NCBI GenBank assembly: GCA_016758965.1
Contig: JAEPRB010000059.1
Location: 1 to 64,000, forward strand
Direction of reading: 5' to 3'
DNA: 64,000 bases
DNA from: Circinella minor
Lineage: Eukaryota > Mucoromycota > Mucoromycetes > Mucorales > Lichtheimiaceae
Positions 21,220 through 61,838 of this stretch are shown here, piece by piece. Numbering within the stretch: the first letter of the stretch is position 1; every line of letters begins with the position of its first letter. The notes beneath the pieces were generated by a model. The model saw only the letters and a list, made by a program, of their open reading frames with translations, was not told the DNA's origin and ran no database searches. The translations under genes and the position numbers were made by a program.

Positions 21220-23196
21220 ATGTCTGCCACCACTAATTTTTCTAACTTTACTTTGAAAATCCCGGTTGGGACTCACGTATCTTTTCTCCCAAGAGCGCTG
21301 AAGGCCCGAGAAGCTGCTGCAATAGGAACTACAAAGTCTAGTAAGGAACGAGTATATGGAATTGTTCAATCCTACTCGAATGAGGGGAATGTTTTAATGG
21401 CGTGTGTTCATGTTGCCAATGGCGATCACTCTATATGTAAAGTCAAGGCAGGAAATCTCAAGAAAGAGAGAGAGGCTGAAGAAAACACGGTTCCTGGCGT
21501 TCCTGCTGTTGCTCAAGACGAGGACAACTCTTCTAACCCGTTGTTGAGTTTAGGGATCGACTATGAATCGGATACAGATGAATCGGATAATGGTGAAGGT
21601 CTTGAAGAGGTTCTAGGAGAACAAGGAGATGTTGATTGGGTGGATAAGAGAGTTACTATCGATGTACGACACACTGAGCCTTCTTATAAGAATGATGCAG
21701 TGTTGAATATCGAAAATCATCGGTTTTCAACACCATACATATTTTTTAAAAGGTTTCTACCAATGGATCATATTGTTGATCATGTTATTCCATCCATCAA
21801 TGCTAATGCAGTTGTTCGGTGTATTGAAAAATGGCACCCACTGACGAAGGCTGAATACTTTTTATGGATTGCACTTTGGACTTATATGGCATGGCTTCCT
21901 TGTAGTGATAGAGGTTTTTATTGGAGAACAAAGCCAACAATTCTAGTCCCATCCCCGTACAATTTCGGTCAATGGATGTCGCGCCGTCGTTTTGATGCTA
22001 TTCTGGCAGCTCATACTCTTGAGCATCCTGCCACTATAGCTGCTGGAGTAACAAGCGACCCTCTAGTTCCAATTCGTGGTTTTGTTGAAGTATACAATGA
22101 AAATCTTTTGAATGCAATGGTTCCTGGACGAGTGTTGACAATTGATGAGACGATGAACCAATGGGTTGGGAAGGTATCGCGAATGCCTAATGTGAAGAAG
22201 ATTATTTCGAAACCACATCCTGTTGGTCAAGAATTTAAAACAGTTGCTGATGCTTCGACTAACATTATTATTCGTCTTGATATCAGTGAAAAGAACTTTC
22301 AAGTGAAAAAGTTTGGTGATCAAGGTGCTGTGATTTCTACCGTCTTGCGTCTGTCTGAACCTTGGTTTGCCACTGGAAGAACAATTCTTGCAGATTCCTG
22401 GTTCGGATCCCCTAGTTGTGCTGCTGTTCTTCATCAATATGGTCTATACAGTATCATGGCAATGAAGAAAAGAAGCCATTGGCCACGTCTCGTTCCCCGT
22501 GATCTTCACATGAAGTTAGAAGGAGAACCTGTTGGAACATCGATTTCTCTGGTCAGTATTGTCAAGGACGTACCTATGTCAATTTGTATCTTGCGTGATA
22601 GAAAGATGCAATGTCTTGTTAGTACTTGTGGTAGAACAACACAAGGATCAGAGGTTACTCATGTAATCAAGGAAGGAAACAGAAGTCGCTTTGCGACATT
22701 TTATCGTCCTGCTGTTTTTGATGATTATGGTGCTGGCAAAGGAGCCGTGGATATCAATAATAACAACCGCGATAATATGGCTTCATATCATGATGTCATG
22801 CGGACACACTCCTGGGAAGTTAGAGCGTTTTCTTTCTTTTTGGCACTGGCTGAGGCAAATGCGTACCTTGCATGGCGTTCTTTTGGTCCAGTTGAACAGA
22901 GAAGTATTACCCACTTTTCTTTTCGTGAACAGTTGTGCACTGATATGATTAACGAATACTTGTATGCAGTTAATATTGTTGAAGATGATGAAGAAGATGT
23001 TGATTCATATAGAAATAACACGCGGCATGACCTAGAATCAATTGGAAAAGGGTTTCTAAAAGATAGAACCCCTTATTCACGACAATGGAAATGTCAAATC
23101 TGCAAAAAAAAAACTACACTCAGATGCAGCTGTACCCCGACAAAGGGTCTGTGTAAATCCAACTGCTACCGATTGCACCTTGTAGGTAAGCAATAA
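21220..23196 (+). CDS. PiggyBac-type transposase (DDE_Tnp_1_7), intact frame
   Basis: A 658-residue uninterrupted frame encodes a cut-and-paste transposase. The catalytic triad of the family is visible as LTIDE (D309), LADSWFG (D392) and GAVDINNNN (D511), with spacings close to those of other piggyBac transposases. The C-terminus carries the Cys-rich zinc-binding domain (CQICKKK, RCSC, LCKSNC, about 620-655), which in piggyBac recognises the element ends. Residues 1-85 form an extra N-terminal module containing GTHVSF, VYGIVQSY and ACVHVANG, followed by an acidic linker (95-140). The start at 21220 gives the full N-terminal module and no upstream in-frame ATG is closer. GC content is higher than in the flanks. 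Inverted ACTAGATCTAGT repeats lie on both sides. The gene is either a recent copy or domesticated. Confidence 0.93.
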   Translation: MSATTNFSNFTLKIPVGTHVSFLPRALKAREAAAIGTTKSSKERVYGIVQSYSNEGNVLMACVHVANGDHSICKVKAGNLKKEREAEENTVPGVPAVAQDEDNSSNPLLSLGIDYESDTDESDNGEGLEEVLGEQGDVDWVDKRVTIDVRHTEPSYKNDAVLNIENHRFSTPYIFFKRFLPMDHIVDHVIPSINANAVVRCIEKWHPLTKAEYFLWIALWTYMAWLPCSDRGFYWRTKPTILVPSPYNFGQWMSRRRFDAILAAHTLEHPATIAAGVTSDPLVPIRGFVEVYNENLLNAMVPGRVLTIDETMNQWVGKVSRMPNVKKIISKPHPVGQEFKTVADASTNIIIRLDISEKNFQVKKFGDQGAVISTVLRLSEPWFATGRTILADSWFGSPSCAAVLHQYGLYSIMAMKKRSHWPRLVPRDLHMKLEGEPVGTSISLVSIVKDVPMSICILRDRKMQCLVSTCGRTTQGSEVTHVIKEGNRSRFATFYRPAVFDDYGAGKGAVDINNNNRDNMASYHDVMRTHSWEVRAFSFFLALAEANAYLAWRSFGPVEQRSITHFSFREQLCTDMINEYLYAVNIVEDDEEDVDSYRNNTRHDLESIGKGFLKDRTPYSRQWKCQICKKKTTLRCSCTPTKGLCKSNCYRLHLVGKQ

Positions 23197-30922: not shown

Positions 30923-33900
30923 TTATACAAGCTCTAATTCTACAAATCCGTTGAATGAATCTAATTTCACTATACGAGCGTTCACTACTTGTCCTATTTG
31001 TAGACTTTGCTTCAAATTTTGAATCCTTGCTTTCAAGCCCAACTCCAAGATAGTCACTCTTGCAACTTCCATAGTTCCACCGAGTTCAGATCGTGCCAAC
31101 ATATTAGGTAAATTAACCAGACAAGTCCACTCCATATTACCTTTGCCTTCGCCCATAAATCGGTTCATTAATTCAATAACCCAAAATTGTAAACAATCTT
31201 GTTGTAAAAATGAGAGCTGTTTTTCTCTAATTTCCATACGTGGTAAAAGTTGCTGATCAAGTCGTTCACGAGTGAAAGGAGCTTTTTGTTTGAGTAGGTG
31301 AGCTTTAATTTGCCAATGGGTAACAATATCCAAATAACGTCTTAATGGAGATGTGGCCTTGACATAGCCGTTCGGAATACCCATCAATACATGAGGTAAA
31401 CCTGGCGTAGTTGTCATGGATACCGGTGGTAAGATGCCCATGTATTGAATGACATTAGATAATCCAATAGTACCGGTGTTAGGATTGCGTTCGTTCAGCA
31501 TTTCGAGCCGCTGGGTAATGTCTTGATTGGATATAGTTTCATCAGATGGCCACATTTGTCTTCGATGTGGAATATCGATACCATGTTCTTGTGCAAAATG
31601 ACTGGCAATACGACCACCCAAGATCATAGCTTCAGCAACCATTTTTTTTGCAGGTGAGACAGTGGAATTATCCAATCCAATACGAATAGTAGGTAACGTG
31701 GAGGCATAGTTTGGCAACAGCGATGATGATGATGATGATGATGATGATGACCATGGAGTGAAATGAATATTAGGTAATTCTAATGGTTGTGGTTCAAGTT
31801 CAACATAAGGATTAGGTCGTACAAAATTAAGTGCACCATTTTGGAATCGGAATTGACTATGTTGTGAGGTCAATTTAAATATATCCAACAAGTCTTGTTC
31901 AAATTCCTTGGATACAGTACTAGTTTTTGATGATGATGATAGTATCTGTTGGTCTTCTGCTGTCGTTGTCGTTGTCGTATGTTGTAATGGATGTTCATAT
32001 TTTTTGTCAAAATTTACCAATGGTTCATGAGGAATTGTACTTGTTGCATAAGGTTTCAAAAATTGATCCACATCATTATAATATAACTTCTTGACATTCT
32101 TAACTAAACTTGGTTGAAGTTTCCATGCCTGCACGTTTCCATCTTCCTTATTGAGTTTGCAACTGAACGTCAACGCATATTGGGATCCATTGCTATTAAC
32201 AGTATGTGCTGTATCACCCAAACTAAATTTTTGTGATGCTAAAGCATTCGGTAAGATGGGATGATGACTTTCAGGCAAATAAAGTGATTGACCTCGTTGT
32301 TCCATGACTTTTGCCAAAGCATGGGTAGGTGGTATATAAGCAGACGGGTCAGCAATATGTACATGTAACCACATTGAGTCACTACCAGGTATCCGTTCGA
32401 TAGATATACCGTCGTCGATTTCTTTGGCTGCTTGATCATCGATTGTATAAACTGGCATATCGCCAAAATCATGTCGAATAGCATCGCATGGATCACGTAA
32501 ATAAAATCCGGATTTATCCAATTTACCTTTCAAAAACAAGTTGGAATGTAAATTCATGGTTTGATCCATTTTTTTTGCCTTGTCGGACCAAATGTAATCG
32601 TCAATGACATTGTTGGCATTTTGAATCAACTTGGCATTATCCCAAGGTTTGAACATACCGACTTGCTTCAAAAATAACATTGCTAATTTTCGATCGACAA
32701 ATAAATGATCGTCGTAACAACCCAGCGCTTTTAAAATGGTAGGTGCGAATATTTCATGTGGTGTATGGATACCTGTTGGTGGTGATTTGATCCAATCGGC
32801 AATGAAATTGACAAACATGGCATCAGTGTCGGATAATCCATATTCTTTGCTATTGTATATTTTATCTAAAGACGATTGTGAAATAGTGCCCAAGATAGGA
32901 TCTGCGTGTTCTTTATGAAATTCCACCAATTGCTTGGCTCGTTTGAGAAATTGATTGAAATCATCATTTTTGGATCGTACTGATTCAATAATTTGGGTAA
33001 TAATTTCCGTCTCTTTTTTATCACGTAAAATCCATAGCCCTGTTTGACGCACATTTGTTGTTGGGATAAAATGTATGTTATCGTTCATTAAATATAAAAA
33101 TGTGGCATGTCGTTCTACTTCAGTGACAGTAGGGCCGAATGCAAATTGTGTCAGAATATCTAACGATACGTTGTTGGTGTTGTGTGAATTTCCCGTTCTT
33201 TTATCCGTAAATTGATCATATAATTGTGTGAATCGTTTAAGCTGTATTCCTTTACGTAATTGAATTGTACGTTGATAATCCATGACACCCCGAGTAAATG
33301 ATGCGATCGGGTAGTCATCAGGTAAAGATTCAGCCGAAGAATCGAATTTAAATTTGCTTAACCGAGTATCACTTTGAATAAATTTAGGTACGACGTGTGC
33401 AACAACTGTGCTGCTGAAGTCCTTGGTTTTACCGTTGCGTAATAAAACCGTTAATACTTGACGACCACCACTTGACTTTCGTTGACCAACAACAACACCA
33501 CTGTATTGTCCATTGCTATATAAACGTAAAAGTTTTATTTTGTCAGTAAACATAGTTTACACAGGCAAATGTATATAATTTTAATCTCTCGCACTCTAAT
33601 AATGTGGCGAAACGAGTATATAAACATGTATACATACTGGAAAATTTCAACAAAGTCTCCTAACAGGATCATAGATTGTGTTGATAATTTTTTATTATTG
33701 ATGTCTTTGGATTCTGACAAGGCTTCAAGATCAGCGACAATGTCATTGGTTTCTTCGACTGGAATGGGATCTTGTTCCTCCTGGATAACTTCATTATGAT
33801 TTACTGAGGCTGTTGTTGTCTTTAATGTTTTATTTTGCGGGATTTGTCGAGGTTTTGTAATAGTATTGGTAAAATATCTTTTATCGTTGACTAGTTTGAC

Positions 33901-49694: not shown

Positions 49695-52600
49695 ATGCCC
49701 TTTTGCCTTCCACACTTACTATGCGAAGCAGCACCCCAAGGAGCTTCACATTATAAGTATCCCAAACTAATAATTAACCCTTAATTATTGTTGAATAATA
49801 CGAACTAACAACCTTTTCTTCTATTTCTTGTTTATACAAGTCATGAACGGTTCGTGCTGGAATTAGACTTTGATCAACGCATTGTGGAGGTTTGAATACA
49901 ACTTTTTCTGTTTAACCAAAACTCCAATGATCATCTAATACATTAAACAATTTATTTTCTGTTTACAGGGCACTGCAGAGCTTACCATTCAACCTTCAAA
50001 CGATAAGCTATCGCACGTTCGTATAAATTGTCGACAATGCAGTAAGTAGTTTTCTTCTCTGTTGTAAATAGGGACTACGCGAAACGAGTAACTTCTATTC
50101 ATTTGTTTTTTTTTACAGCAGGGTTGTATAATAAAATACTAACAATCGGAAACATATATAAATATTCATATATTAGACGTTAAGCAAGTTCATGTAGATA
50201 ATGTATTTGCTGAATATACACATAACGATGCAACCTGTGAATTGTCATTAGACGACGATGCTGATATTACACACCATCAAGCATATAAAAGTAAATACTT
50301 GACAGCAATTAGAGAGGCCGATGAAGGCGAACTTGTTATTAAACTACCAGAAGGATCTATTCGACCTGTAAGTTTTTTTTTCCGCCTTCATCGATCTTCA
50401 AAAAGAAATAAATAATTAACCTTAACAACCGATTTTTTTTAAGCTCTCTAATGCTGAAGCTGAAAATATAGTTGACACCTCGACACCTAATAAAGGTAAA
50501 TGAAAAGAATAATTTAGAACAAACGTTGTTTTTTTTGTTACAATGACAACCGAAATAAAAAAAAAACATGAAGTAACATGACCACTCAATTATTAGCTAA
50601 TTCTCCAGAGGTGTCAACACCAACCACAATAACCGATAAAACCAATATTACAAACACGCCCACGGTAGCGACAGCGACAACAACGACTTCTGAAACAACA
50701 TCCGAAACCAAAACAGTTACATATAAGCCTATTACCATTCGTATCCAATATACCATTAACAACCCTCGAGAAGGTTTGGTATTTGTTGAACCAGATCAAG
50801 ATACTGCACCTTATGTAATTTTTTATTTTTTGGCTTTTGTTTTGACAAAAAAAAAAGAGATGGAAATAGAGAGTGAAGGGATTACATTGGATATTATGAT
50901 GAGTATGATTTTATTAATATTGATGGTCCTTTGTGTATATATCTGTAGCGATATCAACATGTATATACTGTAAACCAACCACTTCCTGGAGCAACGCGGT
51001 CATGGCTACCATGTATTGACCGAATATCTGAGCGATGTACATGGGAAATGGAATTCATTGTACCACAGAGAATGGCTACAACTATACCTGGTGAAGATTT
51101 AAATGACACGACTACAATGGATTTGGAAGAAGAAGATACAGTAGTAGTATGCAGCGGTGAGATGGTTGAACAGGTAAGAAAAGTAAACAGAAAATGTGAT
51201 TTAAGTTTTTTCTGCGTGGAATTTTGTGTAAGCATGTGTTATTGACAGATGGATATATTTTTTAAATATATTATGGATGTTAGGTTGTTCATCCAGTGGA
51301 TTCAACTAAAAAAATTGTACGTTATAATCTTTCAACACGAATATCAGCACCTAATATTGGTTTTGCTATTGGGCCTTTCGAAATGATTAAATATACACCA
51401 GCTCAATTACAAGATGAATTATACATGACAGTAACTGAATTAGACGAAGAACAACAAAAAATATTAACGGAAGCTGTTGAATGGGTCAAAAATATATATG
51501 TGTTTGCACCGCCAGGTCGTTTGGAGGATTTAAATAATACATGTAATTTTTTAATACATGTGAGTATATACATATTTATATATATATCGTGTTGGTTCCA
51601 AAAGAGAACATCGAGGGTGTATGATGTTTATTTACATGTCATTATTATATTAATTTAGGCAATGCACTTTTATTGTCAAAAATACGGACAATATCCATTT
51701 ACTGATTACAAATTGGTTTTTGTTGAAGATGCATGGTGTGAAACATCCACAAGTGCTTCATTAGCTATTTGTAGCACACATCTTCTACATTCACCTGATA
51801 TTATCGATCAAACATATCATACCCGATGGGCACTTGGTGTAGCATTAGCTAGACAATACTTTGGTGTTCATATCTCGCCTAAATCATGGCCTGATATATG
51901 GTTGATTCGTGGACTCGCCAATTTCATGGCTTCTTTATTTATTAAACAACATCTTGGAAATAACGAATATCGTTTACGGTTGAAGAGGGTAATTAGTAGG
52001 ATATTTTCTTAAAAGGAGTAATTTGTTTGCTACTATGTTCTTGAGGTGTTATTTTTTTTATTTTATACTTATGATTGCTAATCTGCTAATGGTTTTCGTT
52101 GATGGTTTTATCTAGGATATTGATCTTTGTTGCAGTTTAGATATCAATCGAGCACCATTATATAATCAACAATTACCATTTCCATTGGATCCTGAAGATT
52201 TAAATTTTATTGAATTGAAAGCACCTTTGGTTCTTTACATGCTTGACAAACGCATGTCCAAGGCTAGTAGTTCACATAGTCTCGAAAATGCGATCCATAA
52301 AATCAATTCAACGGCCATGAGTGGTCACGTTTCTCATGCCATCAGCACACATTCTTTTCTTCGATTATGTCGTAAATTTAGTGGGTTCGATACACGTACA
52401 TTTGCAGAACAATGGATTTATAAAAGTGGATGTCCCAAATTTACGTTTTCATATAATTTTAATCGAAAACGAATGATTGTTGAATTTTCAATGCGACAAA
52501 AAAACACCAATTCTCAATCAAATACAACAACTGCTAGTACAAATACTCGTGACCATAATAAGATTAGTGGTGCTAGTATTAATAATGACGATGGTCCAAC

Positions 52601-55600
52601 ACCACCACCAACCCCTGCAACTCCCCTCACTCATATTTCTTCTCAAACTGATTCTATATTGGACTATGCAACCACACCTATATTTACTGGAAGTTTAACT
52701 GCGACTATTCATGAAGCTGACGGAACACCTTACGAACATATTCTCAATATTACTAGTATGAACCATACGTTTGAAGTCCAATTTAACACCAAATATAAAC
52801 GTATTCGACGTAATACAAAACGGTTCATAGCTAAACAACAGCAAGCTGCTGCAGCAGCAGCGGCAGAATTACAACAGCAGCTTGATGTTGATTATGACAT
52901 GGATGAGATGATGGGAGCACCAACAAATACATTGGGAATTATTCCTAATTTAGGTTTGGGTATGCCAGTATTTGAAGATGAAGATCTCAAAAAAGAATGG
53001 TGCATCTCTGAGTGGGGTCAAGATGAAGAGGATAAAAGTGAAGCAGCTAGTGCAACATTTGATTGGATTCGACTGGACTCCGAATTTGAATGGTTATGTA
53101 TCATGGAGTTTGAACAACCCGACTTTATGTGGGCAGCACAATTAACAAAGGACCGTGATGTGGTGGCTCAATATGAGGTAAACTTTTATAGCTATTACTC
53201 TTGAAACGAAAGTGATAGGGATAGATAGAAGCAAACAATTTTTTAATTCTTGTTTGTTTATGCAAAACCACAAACATCTTTTTTTTGTTATTATTTTGTT
53301 AGGCGGTGAGTGCATTAAAACGAATGCCTTCTTTACAAACCTCAACAAGTCTTTTACGAGCACTTTTAGATCCAAAATGTTTTTATAAGATCCGCATGGA
53401 ATCAGCTTATGCTCTTTCTTCGGTGAGTCTTACTTTACAAAAAAAATTTAAAAAAAGGAAATGACAAAAAAAAAAGATGATAGATATAATTTATATTTCT
53501 CATATATGTATTTGTATGTTAACGATAATTATGTATCAAATATACATATTAGTGTGCCATAACCGAGTTAAATTGGGTTGGATTACTACAATTAAACAAA
53601 ATGTTCCAGAAACGCTATTGTTTCCCATTACCTGCTTCTTACATGGGTCTGGATAATATGGATACAGATGACGATAAAAGCCTCCCAATTACTCATGTGA
53701 TTCCAAAGCCGAACGATTTTGCAATTTTAACTGATTACTTTTTACAAAAAGCATCGGTTGTTGCATTCTCACAAATTCGAGATAAGCATGGTCGTACACC
53801 TTTTGCCATTCGTAGATTTATTCTGGATCTATTAAAATATAATGATAATACTGGAAATGAAGTAAGTTTATATTCATATGGGTGGGATGGGTGGATAGAT
53901 TATACTTACCAAACACCTTTTCTTCCGTTAGTTTTCAGATAACTATTATGTTTCAACCTTAATTTCCGCACTTGGGGACGCGCTTATACCATCGACTGCT
54001 TCTCATCATTACGATGAAGAATCACACACACAGAGTCCTCGAGATGAACGGTTATTAGAAGAAGCTAAAGCAGAAATTGAACGATTCCGCACACTTGACT
54101 ATGTTGTACCATCTTATCACAATGTTGTCACTATTAGTTGCTTACAGGTAAAATATAATTTTAAAATTATCCAACAGCGAGTTATAATTACAAAGGCTAA
54201 GAGATTATCATGGTAACTGACTACATGTCTTTTTTTTTAATTTTAGACACTTACAAAATTCATGCTGAATGGATTAATGCCTATAGACGTCGAGTCGTTC
54301 CTTTATTATACAAGGTAATATTGAAATATACTTTTTCTATCCGGAAAAAAGTCGAGTATTTACTTACTATTTTAACACTTTTTTTTGATTTTAGATATGG
54401 CAATTATATCGGTGTTCGTTGCGCAGCTTTTGATAGCCTTATTATATTGTGTGGTTTAACCAACAATGACCTTGTACAGTATTATTTCAATGTCATTAAA
54501 ACGGATCCATCAGTTTGTGTATCTCACTATGTTGCACGATCGATGCTTGCATGGCTTGGTCTTGCCATGAAAGACAAAGTTGAAGCTACATCATTATCAT
54601 CATCTGGATCAGGACAAAATGGGTCTTCGATGATGGTAGAAGAATTTGCAGAAGAAGAAGGTCGTGGTGTTGTAGAAAACGAACAAATTCGATTACAATT
54701 GATGGCACAGCAACAGCAACTTCAAGAAGGAATTGAAGGCTTACGCAAACGATTTGAAAATAATAGTGAATTACAAAAGAATATGTGGGATATGCTTACG
54801 TATGTGCCTTTTTTTAAAAAAATTCTACATATCATTAGAATCTCTTAAACCAACAAACGAATTAATTTAATAATATACGCTTGATGTTGTTTATAGATCT
54901 ACCGAAAATTTATCAGAATTGGATCATTGTACACGAAAATATTTACTACAGCTTTGTGAATACATGTATAAACCAATCGATTCTGGACTAAAGGTTACCA
55001 TCAAAATGCCACCTTTACAAATGCCAACAGAGGAACAGCAACAAGGATCACAAGATCAAACAAATGGAATTATTGTAGAGGAACCCCAGGAAGTGGAAAA
55101 ATCTGTACAAAAACCTGCTACAATTCTTCGCATCAGTGTTCCAAAACGACCCGTGCCATCACCATCTGAAGAACCCAAAGAACGAGAAGGTAAAAAAGAA
55201 AAGAAAAAAATAATAATACATATATCAATGTACACAAGTAAAAAAAAAATAGGATATTAAATATAAAGTCGACTAACAAATATATGGTTACTAATATTAG
55301 TGGAGCAAGTACCCATACCATCAACACCCAAAAAATTATCAAAGAAACCTATTGTTCGTATTAAAACACAACCTACCAAAATCATACCAGTATCTCCACC
55401 ACCTTCATCTACGACATCACCAGAACCCACCGCACGACCTCCTTCTGTTGCCACGAAAACACCATTTACACCATTATCTAAATCTCTTCCTACCGGTATG
55501 CCAACTGATCAAGCCAAAGATTGTCGTCGTATCCTGGGTAAACTTCAAAAGAATCGTGCAGCACTTTTATTTGTAGAACCTGTAAATGAAGCTCTTGACG

Positions 55601-57652
55601 GCGCACCTGACTACTACAAGATCATAAAGTAAGTACACTTGTTTTTTTATTTATGATGAGCATAGTTGAAAGAAGCTGATAAGGAAATCGTCATACATAA
55701 TTTTTATTTATTTTATACAAGAGAACCAATGGATCTTGGAACCATCAAGGTAAAAAAAAAAGTTTCCTTTTTTTAAAGCAAAGGAGAAGAACGGAGTGGA
55801 GTTAGGCAATTACATATGAAACTTATACTTACACATTTTTTAATCCTTATAGGCCAAACTGGATCGAAATATTTATAGTTCATTTGATGAATTTGAAAAA
55901 GACATTCGATTGATCTTTAACAATTGCTACACTTATAATCGACCAGGAACCTATGTATATAACGAAGCGCAATCATTAGAGTCCATATTTGATACTGAAC
56001 TTCAAAAGCTCAGAGGTATTGAAGAAATGCAAAACATGACTATTGTTGAAGGTCCGATCGAATCAGGAACACAAGCAGCAACAAACAATCAGCATGTATC
56101 CTTAATAGGTGCACAAACAACACAATCAATAGCAGCAGAAGAGACAACGACAACAGTATTCACACCTACTATGGACAACTCATTAACACCCAACACCGAT
56201 GATACCCTTGTGGAAGGAAAAACGGAGATGCAAAAATGTGCCGTCATTCTATCCCATATTATGGAAAATCAACATGCGTTTGAATTTCTTCGCCCTGTCG
56301 ACCCAATCAAACAAGGCATTCCCGACTATGCACAAATTATTAAGAACCCAATGGATCTTGGTACGATTAAGGCCAAACTCACTAATAACGAATACATTGA
56401 CGCGAATCAATTTGATCACGATGTACGGTTGATGTTCAGTAATTGTTATGCATTTAATCGACCTGGTACTTATGTATATAATGAAGGATATCAACTGGAA
56501 CAAGAATACAAGATGTATTGGAAACAATGGTTTGGTCAAGATGAACAAGAGAATGAAAAGTTGGGTGATAAACGAAAAGCAAGAGAAGATGTTTTAGGTA
56601 CTCCTCCTCCTACTTCTAAACCTCGATTAGAATCGGTCGAAAGTGTTCATGATCAGGATATTAGTCCATCGCTTCATATTATGGTTAAAAAAGAACCGAA
56701 TCAAAATACTAATGGCGTTGAACAAAAAGACATATCAACAGAAGCAGTAAAGCGACACCACAAGAAAAAAGGGAAAGAGATGGATAGTAGTAATCGTCGA
56801 AGATGTGGACGGATTCTTGAAAAACTTTGGGTTCACGCTAGTTCAGAACCTTTCAGACATCCAGTAAGTAATACTCATTATGTTAATTGACTTATGAGAT
56901 TTGCTTTTTTTTTCTTTTGACGAACACACCTTTTCTAATCTGTATAATCTTACATGTATATTTAGATTGATCCCAATGATGTTCCACAATATCACGAAAT
57001 GATTAAACGACCTATGGACTTATCGACCATCCGAGCCAACCTTGAATCATCTGATCATTATTTAAATATCCATGAACTAGAACGTGATGTTCGACAAATC
57101 TTTTGGAACTGTTATCAATTCAATAATAAATTTGCTCCAGTATCACAACAAGCCAAAACTCTTGAAAAATATTTCAATGAATTATGGGCTAACAAATATG
57201 GTTCTTCGGATCGATTAAAGCCAGGGGATTATGGTTACGAAACAGCTCACAAGGTCATCGAAAAACTACGATCTCATGATGCATCTTATATATTTAATGA
57301 ACCTGTGGATATAACGGTGATTACGGATTATCTTTCAACTATCAAGAAACCTATTGATCTACGGACCATCTCTGAAAAATTGGAATCGGGCCAGTATGAC
57401 AAGTTACAGCAAGTAGATGCTGATATACAACTCATGTTTTCGAATTGTTATGCTTATAATAATCCAATAACGTTTGTTCATCAGCAAGGCAAAAAATTGG
57501 AACGATATTATAATAATACTGCAGGCCATGATATGAAGCATTGTATCAAGGTGTTAGAGGAAGGTGGTGATTTGAATGCCCTGACTCTTTCTTTGAAAGT
57601 ACCTTCAACATCTGCTAAAAAATCAAAAAGCAAAAAGAAAAAGCAATCCTAA
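49695..57652 (+). CDS. TAF2: TAF2 homologue fused to four bromodomains (about 2000 aa)
   Basis: Twenty exons: 49695-49756, 49841-49889, 49969-50041, 50177-50367, 50444-50495, 50597-50814, 50949-51173, 51284-51559, 51659-51988, 52116-53177, 53303-53422, 53553-53861, 53932-54147, 54247-54314, 54395-54799, 54897-55189, 55301-55628, 55722-55749, 55853-56863, 56966-57652, all phase-compatible. Residues 25-500 form the M1-aminopeptidase-like part of TAF2 (ELTIQPSNDKLSHVRINC; FAIGPFEMIKY; VEDAWCETSTSASLAI). The zinc motif HExxH is replaced by ALGVALARQ, so it is not a peptidase. Further TAF2 blocks are GFDTRTFAEQWI, FEQPDFMWAAQL and FSDNYYVSTLISAL. TAF2 is a core TFIID subunit. After a Pro/Thr-rich linker come bromodomains at about 1390-1492, 1561-1659, 1752-1848 and 1864-1955. 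Each keeps the acetyl-lysine-binding Asn (CYTYN, CYAFN, CYQFN, CYAYN). A basic tail (KKSKSKKKK) ends the protein. The first exon is the least certain. Confidence 0.9.
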
Positions 57653-58366: not shown

Positions 58367-58975
58367 TTATGGCTTGATGTTCTTTGTTACTGTCGTTGTT
58401 GTATTAATAGTACTGGCTCCTGCACCAGTTTGTTTTGCAGCACCAAATAATCTTGGCGCATATTTGCTCCAACCCAAAGCGTGAATTTTACGAACAAAAG
58501 CCGGGGTAATAGCGGCTGTTACCGTTACTCGAAAAGGTAAAAACAAAGTCTTGTGTATACCGTAGGCCAAAACAAACACTGATGCCAATGATGCTCCTTC
58601 TTTTTCTTGACTAGGATCTCTTTCAGGCCTTGGTGGTAAACCACGCCATTCATTCACTGTATTCATTACTTTATCTTCCAACACCTTGACCTTGTCCTGT
58701 CCAAGAACCTGAATCCCGGCAAATGTCAAACCAAGATCCACCACTCCAATACCCAAATAAACAATAACACCTGCTGCACCATATTTTTGTGCTAATTCCT
58801 TGAGTTTACCTACTTTGGGTGCCGCTTTTTCTTTCGCTTTTTCTTTAGCTTCGGCAACTTTAGGTTTAATTGTTTCTGCAAACTTAGACTTGGTGGTTGG
58901 GTTGGTAGGTGTAGTATAAGCGCGTCGAAAGACAACGGATTGAGCAGCTGCTCTTCGGATCGGATTCATGAACAT
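58367..58975 (-). CDS. DUF1279 (FAM210/Nat2-like) mitochondrial protein
   Basis: A single exon of 202 residues from the ATG at 58975. The N-terminus MFMNPIRRAAAQSVVFRRAY is a clear basic, amphipathic mitochondrial presequence; an upstream in-frame ATG at 59041 would add 22 residues including a Lys run and was not chosen. A charged Ala/Lys/Glu helix (about 35-60) is followed by the DUF1279 core, with GAAGVIVYLGIGVVDLGL (67-84, a membrane segment) and a second hydrophobic helix (ASVFVLAYGIHKTL, 131-144). Yeast Nat2 and animal FAM210A/B share this domain and are mitochondrial inner-membrane proteins; the molecular role is poorly defined. Confidence 0.85.
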   Translation of the reverse strand: MFMNPIRRAAAQSVVFRRAYTTPTNPTTKSKFAETIKPKVAEAKEKAKEKAAPKVGKLKELAQKYGAAGVIVYLGIGVVDLGLTFAGIQVLGQDKVKVLEDKVMNTVNEWRGLPPRPERDPSQEKEGASLASVFVLAYGIHKTLFLPFRVTVTAAITPAFVRKIHALGWSKYAPRLFGAAKQTGAGASTINTTTTVTKNIKP

Positions 58976-59580
58976 TGAAGATTTTTGATAGATTTGATTT
59001 AGTAGTTTTTTTTTTAAAAAAAAAGAGACCACCCTCTTCAAAAGACTTTTTGAAATTAGAAAATGAAATATAAAAAAAAAATGGGTCGTGCGTTACTTTT
59101 TTTTTTTTTACTTTTCGTTGTTTTTTTCTCGGCTAATTTGTTTAAGCTTTTAAAAATTGTTTTGACGCATTTTCGTTCCGAACGGAAGGTATTCTTATAT
59201 CTTCCGCCATGGATTTTTTTTTGTATTATTACCACGACCACATCAATTTCTCAAGGATGTTAACCATGGCACGTAAGCTTGAATCTAAAATAAAATTATT
59301 GGGTCGTATTTAATCAATTATTGCTTGATATTTATTCCAAATAACTGAAAAAAAAGAGAACAAAGATTATTGTCAATAAGTATGTTTTTTAATTTCAATA
59401 TGTAAACTTTTATCATTTCTCTATTCCTCTAGTTCAACAATATTTTCTAGCTCTTAATTATCACTAGTTTTATTAACTTAAAGGTTTACCACGCAAAAAA
59501 ATCATGCGTACATAGCACATGTTTCGTTTGTTTATAGTACCGGTATATATAATGAGTAAATAAAAAAATTAAGCTCTATA
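58976..59580. other. Intergenic region, no firm gene
   Basis: A 66-codon plus frame (59063-59263) is hydrophobic and T-run driven. An ATGGCACGTAAGC string at 59266 could be a start directly followed by an intron donor, but joining it to the only nearby acceptor yields a 12-residue peptide, so it is not called. Confidence 0.4.
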
Positions 59581-60101: not shown

Positions 60102-61838
60102 TTAATGGATAATAAATGTTTCTTCTGGTGATGGAGTATAGTCAGAGAAAAATTTTTCACTAGTGTGAACCAAACAATGACCAATTGCTTTGTAATAATC
60201 ACCATCTTTTCTGACCACAGGATACATTATTTCCTTGTTATTTGTATCATCCTTGAAAGGTATGCCATAAAGAATGGCGTACTTGGCAGAATAGTCTACT
60301 TTCTCTGTTAAGGAAAGTAAGAATCTCATGAGTGTCCCACTAGCGTCTAATTCAGCTTGATTTTCAACCCAGAAAAATTCCTTCTTGTCAACCGGCATGA
60401 AAAGTGATAGAAGAGACATTTGTTTGGTGATCAGGCTACGATAAAGTTCTTGATGTTCAGAATTTGGTCTATGAAATCTTGCATGTAACAATTTGGGTGT
60501 ATCACATCCAGGAAGTTGAACTTTGACTGCAAGCGTGTTATACAAATCATATTTCTCTTCTGGTAAATATGGCAAATCCTCTAGTTCAATCGGCCTAAAT
60601 GGGTCAATGTTGATTGTTGAACGGGGATTATCAATGGACCAAATAGGAGAACAGTGAACTTTCATAAACCGGCCGTCGATAGAATAGTTTTTGAAATCCG
60701 TTTTCCACAATCCGGTAGAAGTACCTCCACCAAATAGTTCATGCTGCCCGTTTATACCAGTCCAAGAAGGTAAATCATACTTTCGAATCAAAATAGCAGT
60801 ATTTTCTTCACCTTCCTCCTGTTCAATAAAGTTTTCTTCTATGCCTTTGTAATGCTCTCCATCTTCACCAAAGCAAAGTATAGAAAGATCTTCTTGAGCC
60901 ATCATTCCATAAAACTTAAGTAACAATCCATCTAGATCTTGTTTGTAATTAACGTCAATTCGGTCCATTAAATGGGGATATAAATTGGCAAGTGCAAACA
61001 CTCGATCATGTGCATTTGTACAATCACGTGAGTGGGCAAAATATAAAACAGTGGCAGCGTTCCAACGTGATGGTTTATCTGCTAATGCACCCAATGAAGC
61101 CCATTCTACCGCAACAGGGCCTAACATATATGTATCCTTGCCAACAAAGAGTAATTGTTTAGATATCATAGCTTCTTCTAACGTCCACATACGTTGCATC
61201 CAATCTGAATACGATAAGCCAATGGTTCGAATAGCTCGATATGTTCCCATATTGTGTGACCACATTTCCGTTTCTAATTCCGGTACATGGACGATAGTAC
61301 AATAAGCATTACCATAAACCCGATGCATCTGCTTGATTTCACGATGTTTTTCTTCTTTGTCTTCTTGATTAATGCACATTTGATCAAACCAAATATAATT
61401 GATATTAAAGTCTTTACACATTTGTTGAATAATGCCTTCAAACATGACATACTTGATTTCACCAGATGAGGAAATATCCTCTTGATCATCGTGATCTTCT
61501 GAATTAGGTGGTGTATCTACATTTTTGGGTGGGAAGATAATTTGGTGTTCTCCATTATCGACGCGTACGCTTTTTCCTCCTTGTACAATATTATTTTCAC
61601 CAGACCAACTCCAAGAATAAGACAATGCACAATATCCTTCGTCTTTCACGGTACTTCCTTTGACTACTTTCATATCAGATACCCGAACAAGCTTGGTAGG
61701 CATGAACGGATCTTTTGATTTTGGTATTATTGATGGAAATAACTTGGGTGGTTCAGTGTGTCGTTCAACAGTAAATGTATCTTTATTTATATAATACTGG
61801 TTTGTTTCGTACGTGACATACATTTTTTCTATCAACAT
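60102..61838 (-). CDS. HET-domain (heterokaryon incompatibility-type) protein
   Basis: A single-exon frame of 578 residues. The HET domain occupies about 66-225, with its usual blocks: YCALSYSWSW (69-78), YIWFDQMCINQED (149-161), then the Tyr/Ala block MHRVYGNAYCTIVHVPE (171-187) and MQRMWTLEEAM (214-224). AHDRVFALANLYPH (264-277) follows, as in most HET proteins. In ascomycetes HET proteins trigger cell death after fusion of incompatible hyphae; in early-diverging fungi their role is unknown. A Ser/Asp-rich insert (about 108-127) interrupts the domain between the first two blocks. The C-terminal third has no recognised domain. A decayed partial copy lies 335 bases downstream. Confidence 0.88.
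   Translation of the reverse strand: MLIEKMYVTYETNQYYINKDTFTVERHTEPPKLFPSIIPKSKDPFMPTKLVRVSDMKVVKGSTVKDEGYCALSYSWSWSGENNIVQGGKSVRVDNGEHQIIFPPKNVDTPPNSEDHDDQEDISSSGEIKYVMFEGIIQQMCKDFNINYIWFDQMCINQEDKEEKHREIKQMHRVYGNAYCTIVHVPELETEMWSHNMGTYRAIRTIGLSYSDWMQRMWTLEEAMISKQLLFVGKDTYMLGPVAVEWASLGALADKPSRWNAATVLYFAHSRDCTNAHDRVFALANLYPHLMDRIDVNYKQDLDGLLLKFYGMMAQEDLSILCFGEDGEHYKGIEENFIEQEEGEENTAILIRKYDLPSWTGINGQHELFGGGTSTGLWKTDFKNYSIDGRFMKVHCSPIWSIDNPRSTINIDPFRPIELEDLPYLPEEKYDLYNTLAVKVQLPGCDTPKLLHARFHRPNSEHQELYRSLITKQMSLLSLFMPVDKKEFFWVENQAELDASGTLMRFLLSLTEKVDYSAKYAILYGIPFKDDTNNKEIMYPVVRKDGDYYKAIGHCLVHTSEKFFSDYTPSPEETFIIH

What the first reader, a model, noticed from the sequence alone, without database searches (positions are those of the whole stretch)
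49695..57652. TAF2 subunit of TFIID carries four bromodomains in one reading frame
Seen directly: 20 exons with compatible phases run from the aminopeptidase-like TAF2 part into four bromodomains, each with the conserved CYxxN asparagine, and no stop lies between them. Established: in animals the TFIID bromodomains are on TAF1; in yeast they are supplied by the separate protein Bdf1; TAF2 in those groups has none. Inference: in this lineage the acetyl-lysine reading role may have moved to TAF2, perhaps compensating for a TAF1 without bromodomains. I cannot tell whether this is already described for related fungi.
Basis: partly seen in the sequence, partly recalled or inferred. Interest (0 to 1): 0.87.

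Follow-up and report, generated by a model that had tools for sequence, protein, structure and literature searches.

The report
Fungal TAF2 with four acetyl-lysine readers
A core subunit of the machine that starts gene reading (TAF2 of TFIID) carries four histone-acetylation-reading domains in this mould; such domains sit on TAF2 in nearly all the non-ascomycete fungal copies examined and in none of the few ascomycete ones, so the model yeasts may be the exception rather than the rule.

Summary
A 20-exon gene model at 49695-57652 (+) encodes a 1996-aa TAF2 with four bromodomains (BDs); all four keep the pocket Asn and ZA-loop Tyr. It is very probably one gene: in the genome's second TAF2 copy (contig C12, six BDs) a single intron-free exon runs from the TAF2 body into BD1, and the linker is conserved in Zychaea (162 of 210 aligned residues identical). 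The genome is very probably Circinella minor (Mucorales).

Of 110 named non-ascomycete fungal TAF2 clusters retrieved, 106 carry BDs; the 4 misses are short models. Ascomycota 0 of 5, named non-fungal 0 of 3. "Compensating for TAF1" is only half right: TAF1 here lacks BDs, but 21 of 22 Mortierellomycotina TAF1 have one, and Mortierella TAF2 has four. The window copy is a longer-branched 4-BD paralogue. Origin and number of gains of the BDs are unresolved. Likely function: a multivalent acetyl-histone reader on TFIID's TAF2 tail. I found no paper stating this architecture, but a key review could not be read and databases already record it.

The parts
49695..49756 (+). exon 1 (start codon; least certain exon)
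   Evidence: phase fits exon 2, but relative P0002 has another N-terminus
49841..49889 (+). exon 2
49969..50041 (+). exon 3
50177..50367 (+). exon 4
50444..50495 (+). exon 5
50609..50814 (+). exon 6 (acceptor chosen by score; an alternative start 12 nt upstream, 50597, keeps the frame)
50949..51173 (+). exon 7
51284..51559 (+). exon 8
51659..51988 (+). exon 9; most of the M1-aminopeptidase-like stretch (aa 377-483), no HExxH in the protein
52116..53177 (+). exon 10; holds the TAF2 Ig-like domain (PF25316, aa 592-823, 52425-53120)
53303..53422 (+). exon 11; TPR/HEAT-like region (PF25577, aa 824-1140, runs from the end of exon 10 to exon 15)
53553..53861 (+). exon 12
53932..54147 (+). exon 13
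54247..54314 (+). exon 14
54395..54799 (+). exon 15
54897..55189 (+). exon 16, linker between TAF2 body and BDs
55301..55628 (+). exon 17, linker and first part of BD1
55722..55749 (+). exon 18, inside BD1
55853..56863 (+). exon 19, rest of BD1, BD2, start of BD3
56966..57652 (+). exon 20, most of BD3, BD4, Lys-rich tail, TAA stop
55525..56008 (+). bromodomain 1 (aa 1388-1483, interrupted by two introns)
56240..56527 (+). bromodomain 2 (aa 1561-1656)
56807..57193 (+). bromodomain 3 (aa 1750-1844, one intron)
57248..57529 (+). bromodomain 4 (aa 1863-1956), 18 aa after BD3: tight tandem pair

Best explanation
The gene encodes a TFIID subunit TAF2 whose C-terminal tail carries four bromodomains. 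The aminopeptidase-like/HEAT body (shown by homology) would build TAF2 into TFIID next to promoter DNA (inferred from known TFIID). The tail (shown) would hold the acetyl-lysine pockets (pocket residues shown, binding inferred) towards acetylated histone tails of the +1 nucleosome, so that TFIID binds acetylated promoters multivalently. BD3-BD4 form a tight tandem of a kind seen in most of these proteins. The architecture was probably already present in the common ancestor of the sampled fungi and was lost in Ascomycota (inference). The window copy is a Lichtheimiaceae paralogue (TAF2a) that keeps BD1-4 but lacks the BD5-6 of the second copy on C12.
Against: No expression, binding or complex data. 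The window copy has a longer branch than the C12 copy, so it may be specialised or decaying. A BET gene with two BDs (C503) could do the TFIID-linked reading, as proposed for yeast Bdf1. A single gain is not proven: in the BD tree the TAF2 BDs do not form one clade (Cryptococcus BD1 falls beside C22, Powellomyces BD3 beside SNF2) and the basidiomycete BDs do not group with Mucoromycota BDs of the same rank; the tree is poorly resolved and one TAF2 clade is not rejected (p-AU 0.202). Only 5 ascomycete and 3 named non-fungal TAF2 (two species) were in hand.
Confidence: 0.8

Rival explanations
1. Handover in this lineage: the reading role moved from TAF1 to TAF2, and the TAF2 BDs arose to compensate for the loss on TAF1.
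For: TAF1 of this genome has no BD. Among the 120 listed TAF1 clusters (of 1088 found): Mucoromycotina set 0 of 49 (includes Calcarisporiella and unnamed rows), Zoopagomycota and Basidiobolus 0 of 7, Basidiomycota set 0 of 40 (includes unnamed rows). TAF2 of these groups has BDs (no Basidiobolus TAF2 was among the hits).
Against: Mortierellomycotina (21 of 22) and Geosiphon (1 of 1) TAF1 have a BD while Mortierella alpina TAF2 has four, so both kinds coexist. Window BD3 and BD4 group with chytrid TAF2 BDs and BD2 with Mortierella BD2, with moderate support, so they look older than Mucorales. A common TAF1+TAF2 BD clade is neither shown nor rejected (p-AU 0.117).
Confidence: 0.15
2. The window copy is not the TFIID workhorse: it is a specialised or decaying duplicate, and the 6-BD gene on C12 is the standard TAF2.
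For: Second copy C12/P0012 has 6 BDs. The window clade has longer branches and fewer BDs; Zychaea and Dichotomocladium also have both copies.
Against: Open frame, all four pockets intact, core 641 of 866 aligned residues identical to Zychaea_a, kept in three genera. Duplication age is unsettled (p-AU 0.042 against one Lichtheimiaceae clade).
Confidence: 0.3
3. Two neighbouring genes, TAF2 and a separate multi-bromodomain gene, wrongly joined.
For: No RNA data; an intron-containing linker of about 250 aa without a Pfam domain; many alternative splice paths are formally possible.
Against: The C12 copy has a single uninterrupted exon across the junction; the linker is conserved (162 of 210); 106 clusters from other fungi are single predicted proteins with both parts.
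Confidence: 0.02

Closest known systems
TAF2 of TFIID (human TAF2; Komagataella Taf2, PDB 6hqa)
   Same: Aminopeptidase-like body, TAF2 Ig-like domain, HEAT/TPR-like C-terminal part; clear sequence match
   Different: The window protein continues into four bromodomains. In budding yeast the Taf2 C-terminal residues instead dock Taf14, a YEATS-domain protein (passages of PMC6220335)
TAF1 double bromodomain of animals
   Same: Bromodomains on a TFIID subunit; a close pair; TAF1 among the matches of BD1 in solved structures
   Different: Different subunit and four domains; a BD relationship specific to TAF1 is neither shown nor excluded
BET proteins / Bdf1
   Same: Several acetyl-lysine readers linked to TFIID; similar BD sequences
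   Different: The window protein has no ET-domain match; a separate BET gene lies on C503
Cryptococcus neoformans CNAG_03273 (TAF2 orthologue)
   [quoted passage not shown] a C. neoformans TAF2 cluster here (P0236) has 3 BDs
   Different: Three BDs instead of four; that paper does not discuss the architecture in the passages seen
Polybromo-1
   Same: Several bromodomains in one chain; first to fourth match by sequence for each of the four BDs
   Different: A chromatin-remodeller subunit without a TAF2 body (recalled)

Membership tests
TAF2 | TAF2-specific Pfam domains TAF2_3rd and TPR_TAF2_C | tested here: met
   99.8 and 202.7 bits against cut-offs of 27
TAF2 | M1-aminopeptidase-like part without the HExxH zinc motif (that TAF2 lacks it is recalled) | tested here: met
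   Peptidase_M1 29.2 bits, cut-off 27.7; no HExxH in the protein
TAF2 | Closest solved structure is Taf2/TAF2 | tested here: met
   aa 1-616: only two matches at E up to 0.001, 6hqa Taf2 and human TAF2
TAF2 | Assembles into TFIID | not testable with these tools
   No interaction data
Bromodomain | Pfam bromodomain profile | tested here: met
   4 stretches, 311.8 bits in all
Bromodomain | Pocket Asn and ZA-loop Tyr | tested here: met
   Both in all four window BDs
Bromodomain | Four-helix bromodomain fold | tested here: met
Bromodomain | Binds acetyl-lysine | not testable with these tools
   Needs binding assay
BET (Bdf1/BRD4) | ET domain (PF17035) after the BDs | tested here: not met
   Not among Pfam hits (E up to 0.001) of the 1996-aa protein
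TAF1 | DUF3591 core | tested here: not met
   No DUF3591 among the Pfam hits of the window protein; TAF1 is a different gene, on C189

The most novel reading that the evidence does not exclude
Outside Ascomycota, the acetyl-lysine reader of fungal TFIID is the TAF2 tail, usually with three to six bromodomains and a tight tandem pair. Budding yeasts are the derived exception, having replaced this built-in reader at the same place (the Taf2 C-terminus) with the docked YEATS protein Taf14, and with Bdf1. TAF1's own bromodomains were then lost several times because TAF2 already did the reading.
Probability: 0.45. Interest if true: 0.72.

Novelty: new variant of a known kind. Interest (0 to 1): 0.55.

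Why it matters
TFIID is taught from animals (bromodomains on TAF1) and budding yeast (none built in; Bdf1 and Taf14 outside). If most fungal phyla carry several bromodomains on TAF2, the yeast arrangement is derived. Fungal TFIID would then have its own built-in chromatin reader on a different subunit from the animal one, in moulds, smuts, mushrooms, chytrids and Cryptococcus. It makes a clear question testable: is there always one acetyl-reader on TFIID, and does evolution move it between subunits?

Tried and rejected
Two-gene reading: rejected by the C12 exon and linker conservation.

Uniqueness of the splice path: a count of stop-free paths gave about 18 million, so an open frame alone is no evidence for these exact exon ends.

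Chimeric assembly: unlikely, since the same architecture is in many genera.

BD origin (TAF2 alone, TAF2 with TAF1, TAF2 with BET): AU tests rejected none of the three groupings (p 0.202, 0.117, 0.241). The free tree (73 rows, 101 columns) has none of them, and places Cryptococcus BD1 and Powellomyces BD3 outside the other TAF2 BDs. No conclusion. It used 14 of the 136 TAF2 clusters plus the window; BD fragments under 80 aa were dropped.

Age of the TAF2 duplication: p-AU 0.042 against a single Lichtheimiaceae clade, with a long branch in play (20 clusters plus the window): left open.

Animal and chytrid TAF1: only 120 of 1088 matches were listed, none an animal or a chytrid. The TAF1 contrast therefore covers only Mucoromycota, Zoopagomycota and Basidiobolus, and Basidiomycota.

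Counts: taxa were sorted by hand from names. Misses kept: short TAF2 models without BDs (P0198 1027 aa, P0226 1274, P0248 681, P0254 795) and one short Mortierellomycotina TAF1 (P0134). Left out of the taxon tally: 18 unnamed TAF2 clusters (6 with BDs, 12 without) and the hits that are not TAF2 (P0070-P0072, P0260-P0268). The three named non-fungal proteins come from two species. P0034 (Bifiguratus) is a chimeric gene model, counted as it stands.

Literature: 10 searches. None of the listings showed a paper stating that fungal TAF2 carries bromodomains. Only the top rows were seen where there were more (20 of 40, 30 of 73, 20 of 826, 20 of 560, 20 of 64). The most relevant review, Antonova et al. 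2019 on TFIID evolution, is recalled and not held; it may already describe this. Passages only were read of PMC4030286, PMC6220335, PMC8266393 and PMC12844337.

Fold search: TAF1 and polybromo do not appear in the 50 tied rows; nothing is drawn from that.
Full report
What is there. The plus strand of 49695-57652 holds a gene of 20 exons. Starting from hand-read splice sites, a search over alternative GT and AG sites within 25 nt, scored by splice consensus, gave a stop-free best path of 1996 aa. It is the best path, not the only one: about 18 million stop-free combinations exist within those limits, all entering the last exon in the same phase, so the exact exon ends rest on consensus and homology. 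Pfam finds the TAF2-specific domains TAF2_3rd (aa 592-823) and TPR_TAF2_C (824-1140), a weak M1-peptidase match (377-483), four bromodomains, and DUF7877 inside BD4. The first 616 residues match solved Taf2 of Komagataella (1.3e-78) and human TAF2 (3.1e-56), and nothing else at E up to 0.001. HExxH is absent, which fits TAF2 as I recall it. A profile built from these domains places the BDs at aa 1388-1483, 1561-1656, 1750-1844 and 1863-1956. The first exon is the weakest part of the model.

One gene, not two. The genome has a second TAF2 gene on contig C12. There, one exon of about 700 nt (L019:3933-4628) runs without stop or intron from the end of the TAF2 body into BD1, in one frame. In the Zychaea relative P0001 the linker aa 1141-1387 has 162 identical residues of 210 aligned.

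Which organism. Protein P0012 (Circinella minor INT45_010166) matches C12 (204 of 204 residues in its last exon), and its contig length of 371633 equals that of C12. TAF1 residues 400-1196 are 99% identical to those of Circinella umbellata. The window is thus very probably from Circinella minor, Lichtheimiaceae, Mucorales (lineage). The best match listed for the window gene was 66% identical, so this copy may be missing or broken up in the public annotation (inference).

How widespread. Two TAF2 searches gave named clusters that I sorted by hand. Bromodomains are present in 34 of 34 Mucoromycotina (4-7 counted; the 7 in P0033 includes broken pieces), 5 of 6 Mortierellomycotina plus Calcarisporiella, 3 of 4 Zoopagomycota, 9 of 11 chytrids and Neocallimastigomycota, and 55 of 55 Basidiomycota (54 with three, 1 with one). 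They are in 0 of 5 Ascomycota and 0 of 3 named non-fungal proteins (Dictyostelium, and two from one flatworm). The four fungal misses are short models of 681-1274 aa. Of 18 further unnamed clusters, 6 have BDs and 12 do not. An oomycete table also lists TAF2 without and TAF1 with a bromodomain (passage of PMC4030286). In 95 of 111 proteins with two or more BDs, a pair lies within 20 aa of each other; in the window it is BD3-BD4.

Paralogues. In the tree of the TAF2 body (45 rows) the window gene groups with P0001 (Zychaea) and P0002 (Dichotomocladium), all with four BDs. This group is apart from the 6-BD copies of Circinella C12, Zychaea, Dichotomocladium and Fennellomyces, plus Phascolomyces (5 counted, the last one partial). 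The window branch is longer than that of C12. Holding both Lichtheimiaceae groups together is only marginally rejected (p-AU 0.042), so the age of the duplication is open. In the BD tree (73 rows) window BD1-BD4 group by position with C12 BD1-BD4. BD5 and BD6 have counterparts in Endogone and Mortierella but are absent from the window gene, which suggests loss. BD3 and BD4 also group with chytrid BDs with moderate support; the basidiomycete BDs stand apart, and two TAF2 BDs fall outside the rest, so a single origin of all TAF2 BDs is not shown.

TAF1 and the compensation idea. TAF1 of this genome (C189) splices to 1196 aa and ends 82 aa after a zinc-knuckle motif, without any BD. Of 120 listed TAF1 clusters (of 1088 found), a BD is present in 21 of 22 Mortierellomycotina and in Geosiphon. 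It is absent in 49 of 49 of the Mucoromycotina set, 7 of 7 Zoopagomycota and Basidiobolus, and 40 of 40 of the Basidiomycota set; 1 unnamed row also lacks it. So a TAF1 BD survives beside TAF2 BDs in Mortierella alpina (clusters P0131 for TAF1; P0035 and P0037, four BDs each, for TAF2). The order of events that fits best is early gain on TAF2 and later, repeated loss on TAF1; this is inference, as chytrid TAF1 was not seen. The BD tree does not settle from which family the TAF2 BDs came. A BET gene with two BDs and an ET domain is on C503, a further ET match is on C187, a second two-BD gene is on C22, and three loci have YEATS matches.

Mechanism. In yeast the Taf2 C-terminus docks Taf14, and this module was proposed to give yeast TFIID the chromatin binding that animals have through the TAF1 bromodomains and TAF3 PHD (passages of PMC6220335). 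Bdf1 was proposed to substitute for the missing Taf1 BDs (passage of PMC8266393). The best-supported model is a TAF2 tail that binds acetylated +1 nucleosomes multivalently and so stabilises TFIID at active promoters.

Known or new. The domain combination is visible in public domain annotation (Pfam column). A 2026 paper reports that the Cryptococcus TAF2 orthologue was hit through the Spt7 bromodomain region (passage of PMC12844337). No paper in the listings of my ten searches states the architecture, but the most relevant review could not be read. I therefore call it a new variant of a known kind (bromodomains on a TFIID subunit), with a real chance that it is already in print.

Noticed in passing
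G000:C12:178000-187900 (L019): Second TAF2 gene of the same genome, with six bromodomains (P0012).
   Followed up: yes
L029 (C98) and L028 (C3): Two related loci in which a bromodomain ORF is followed, in the same order, by kinase-like ORFs; possibly a bromodomain-kinase protein family. For L029, Pfam finds the bromodomain and Pkinase in separate ORFs; L028 was compared by eye only.
   Followed up: partly
window 60102-61838 (-): Intronless 578-aa ORF with a HET (heterokaryon incompatibility) domain near TAF2.
   Followed up: no
window 21220-23196 (+): 658-aa uninterrupted ORF with the transposase domain DDE_Tnp_1_7 (piggyBac type, recalled).
   Followed up: no
window 58367-59041 (-): FAM210A/B-like protein just downstream of TAF2, convergent.
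   Followed up: no
window 30923-33553 (-): 876-aa ORF with RNB ribonuclease domain.
   Followed up: no
C72:132330 and C37:220008 (L025, L027): Two SNF2-type ATPase genes with bromodomains, another duplicated chromatin factor in this genome (family by eye).
   Followed up: no
P0131, P0148 and related proteins: Mortierellomycotina and Geosiphon TAF1 carry one bromodomain, unlike the other fungal TAF1 proteins listed.
   Followed up: partly
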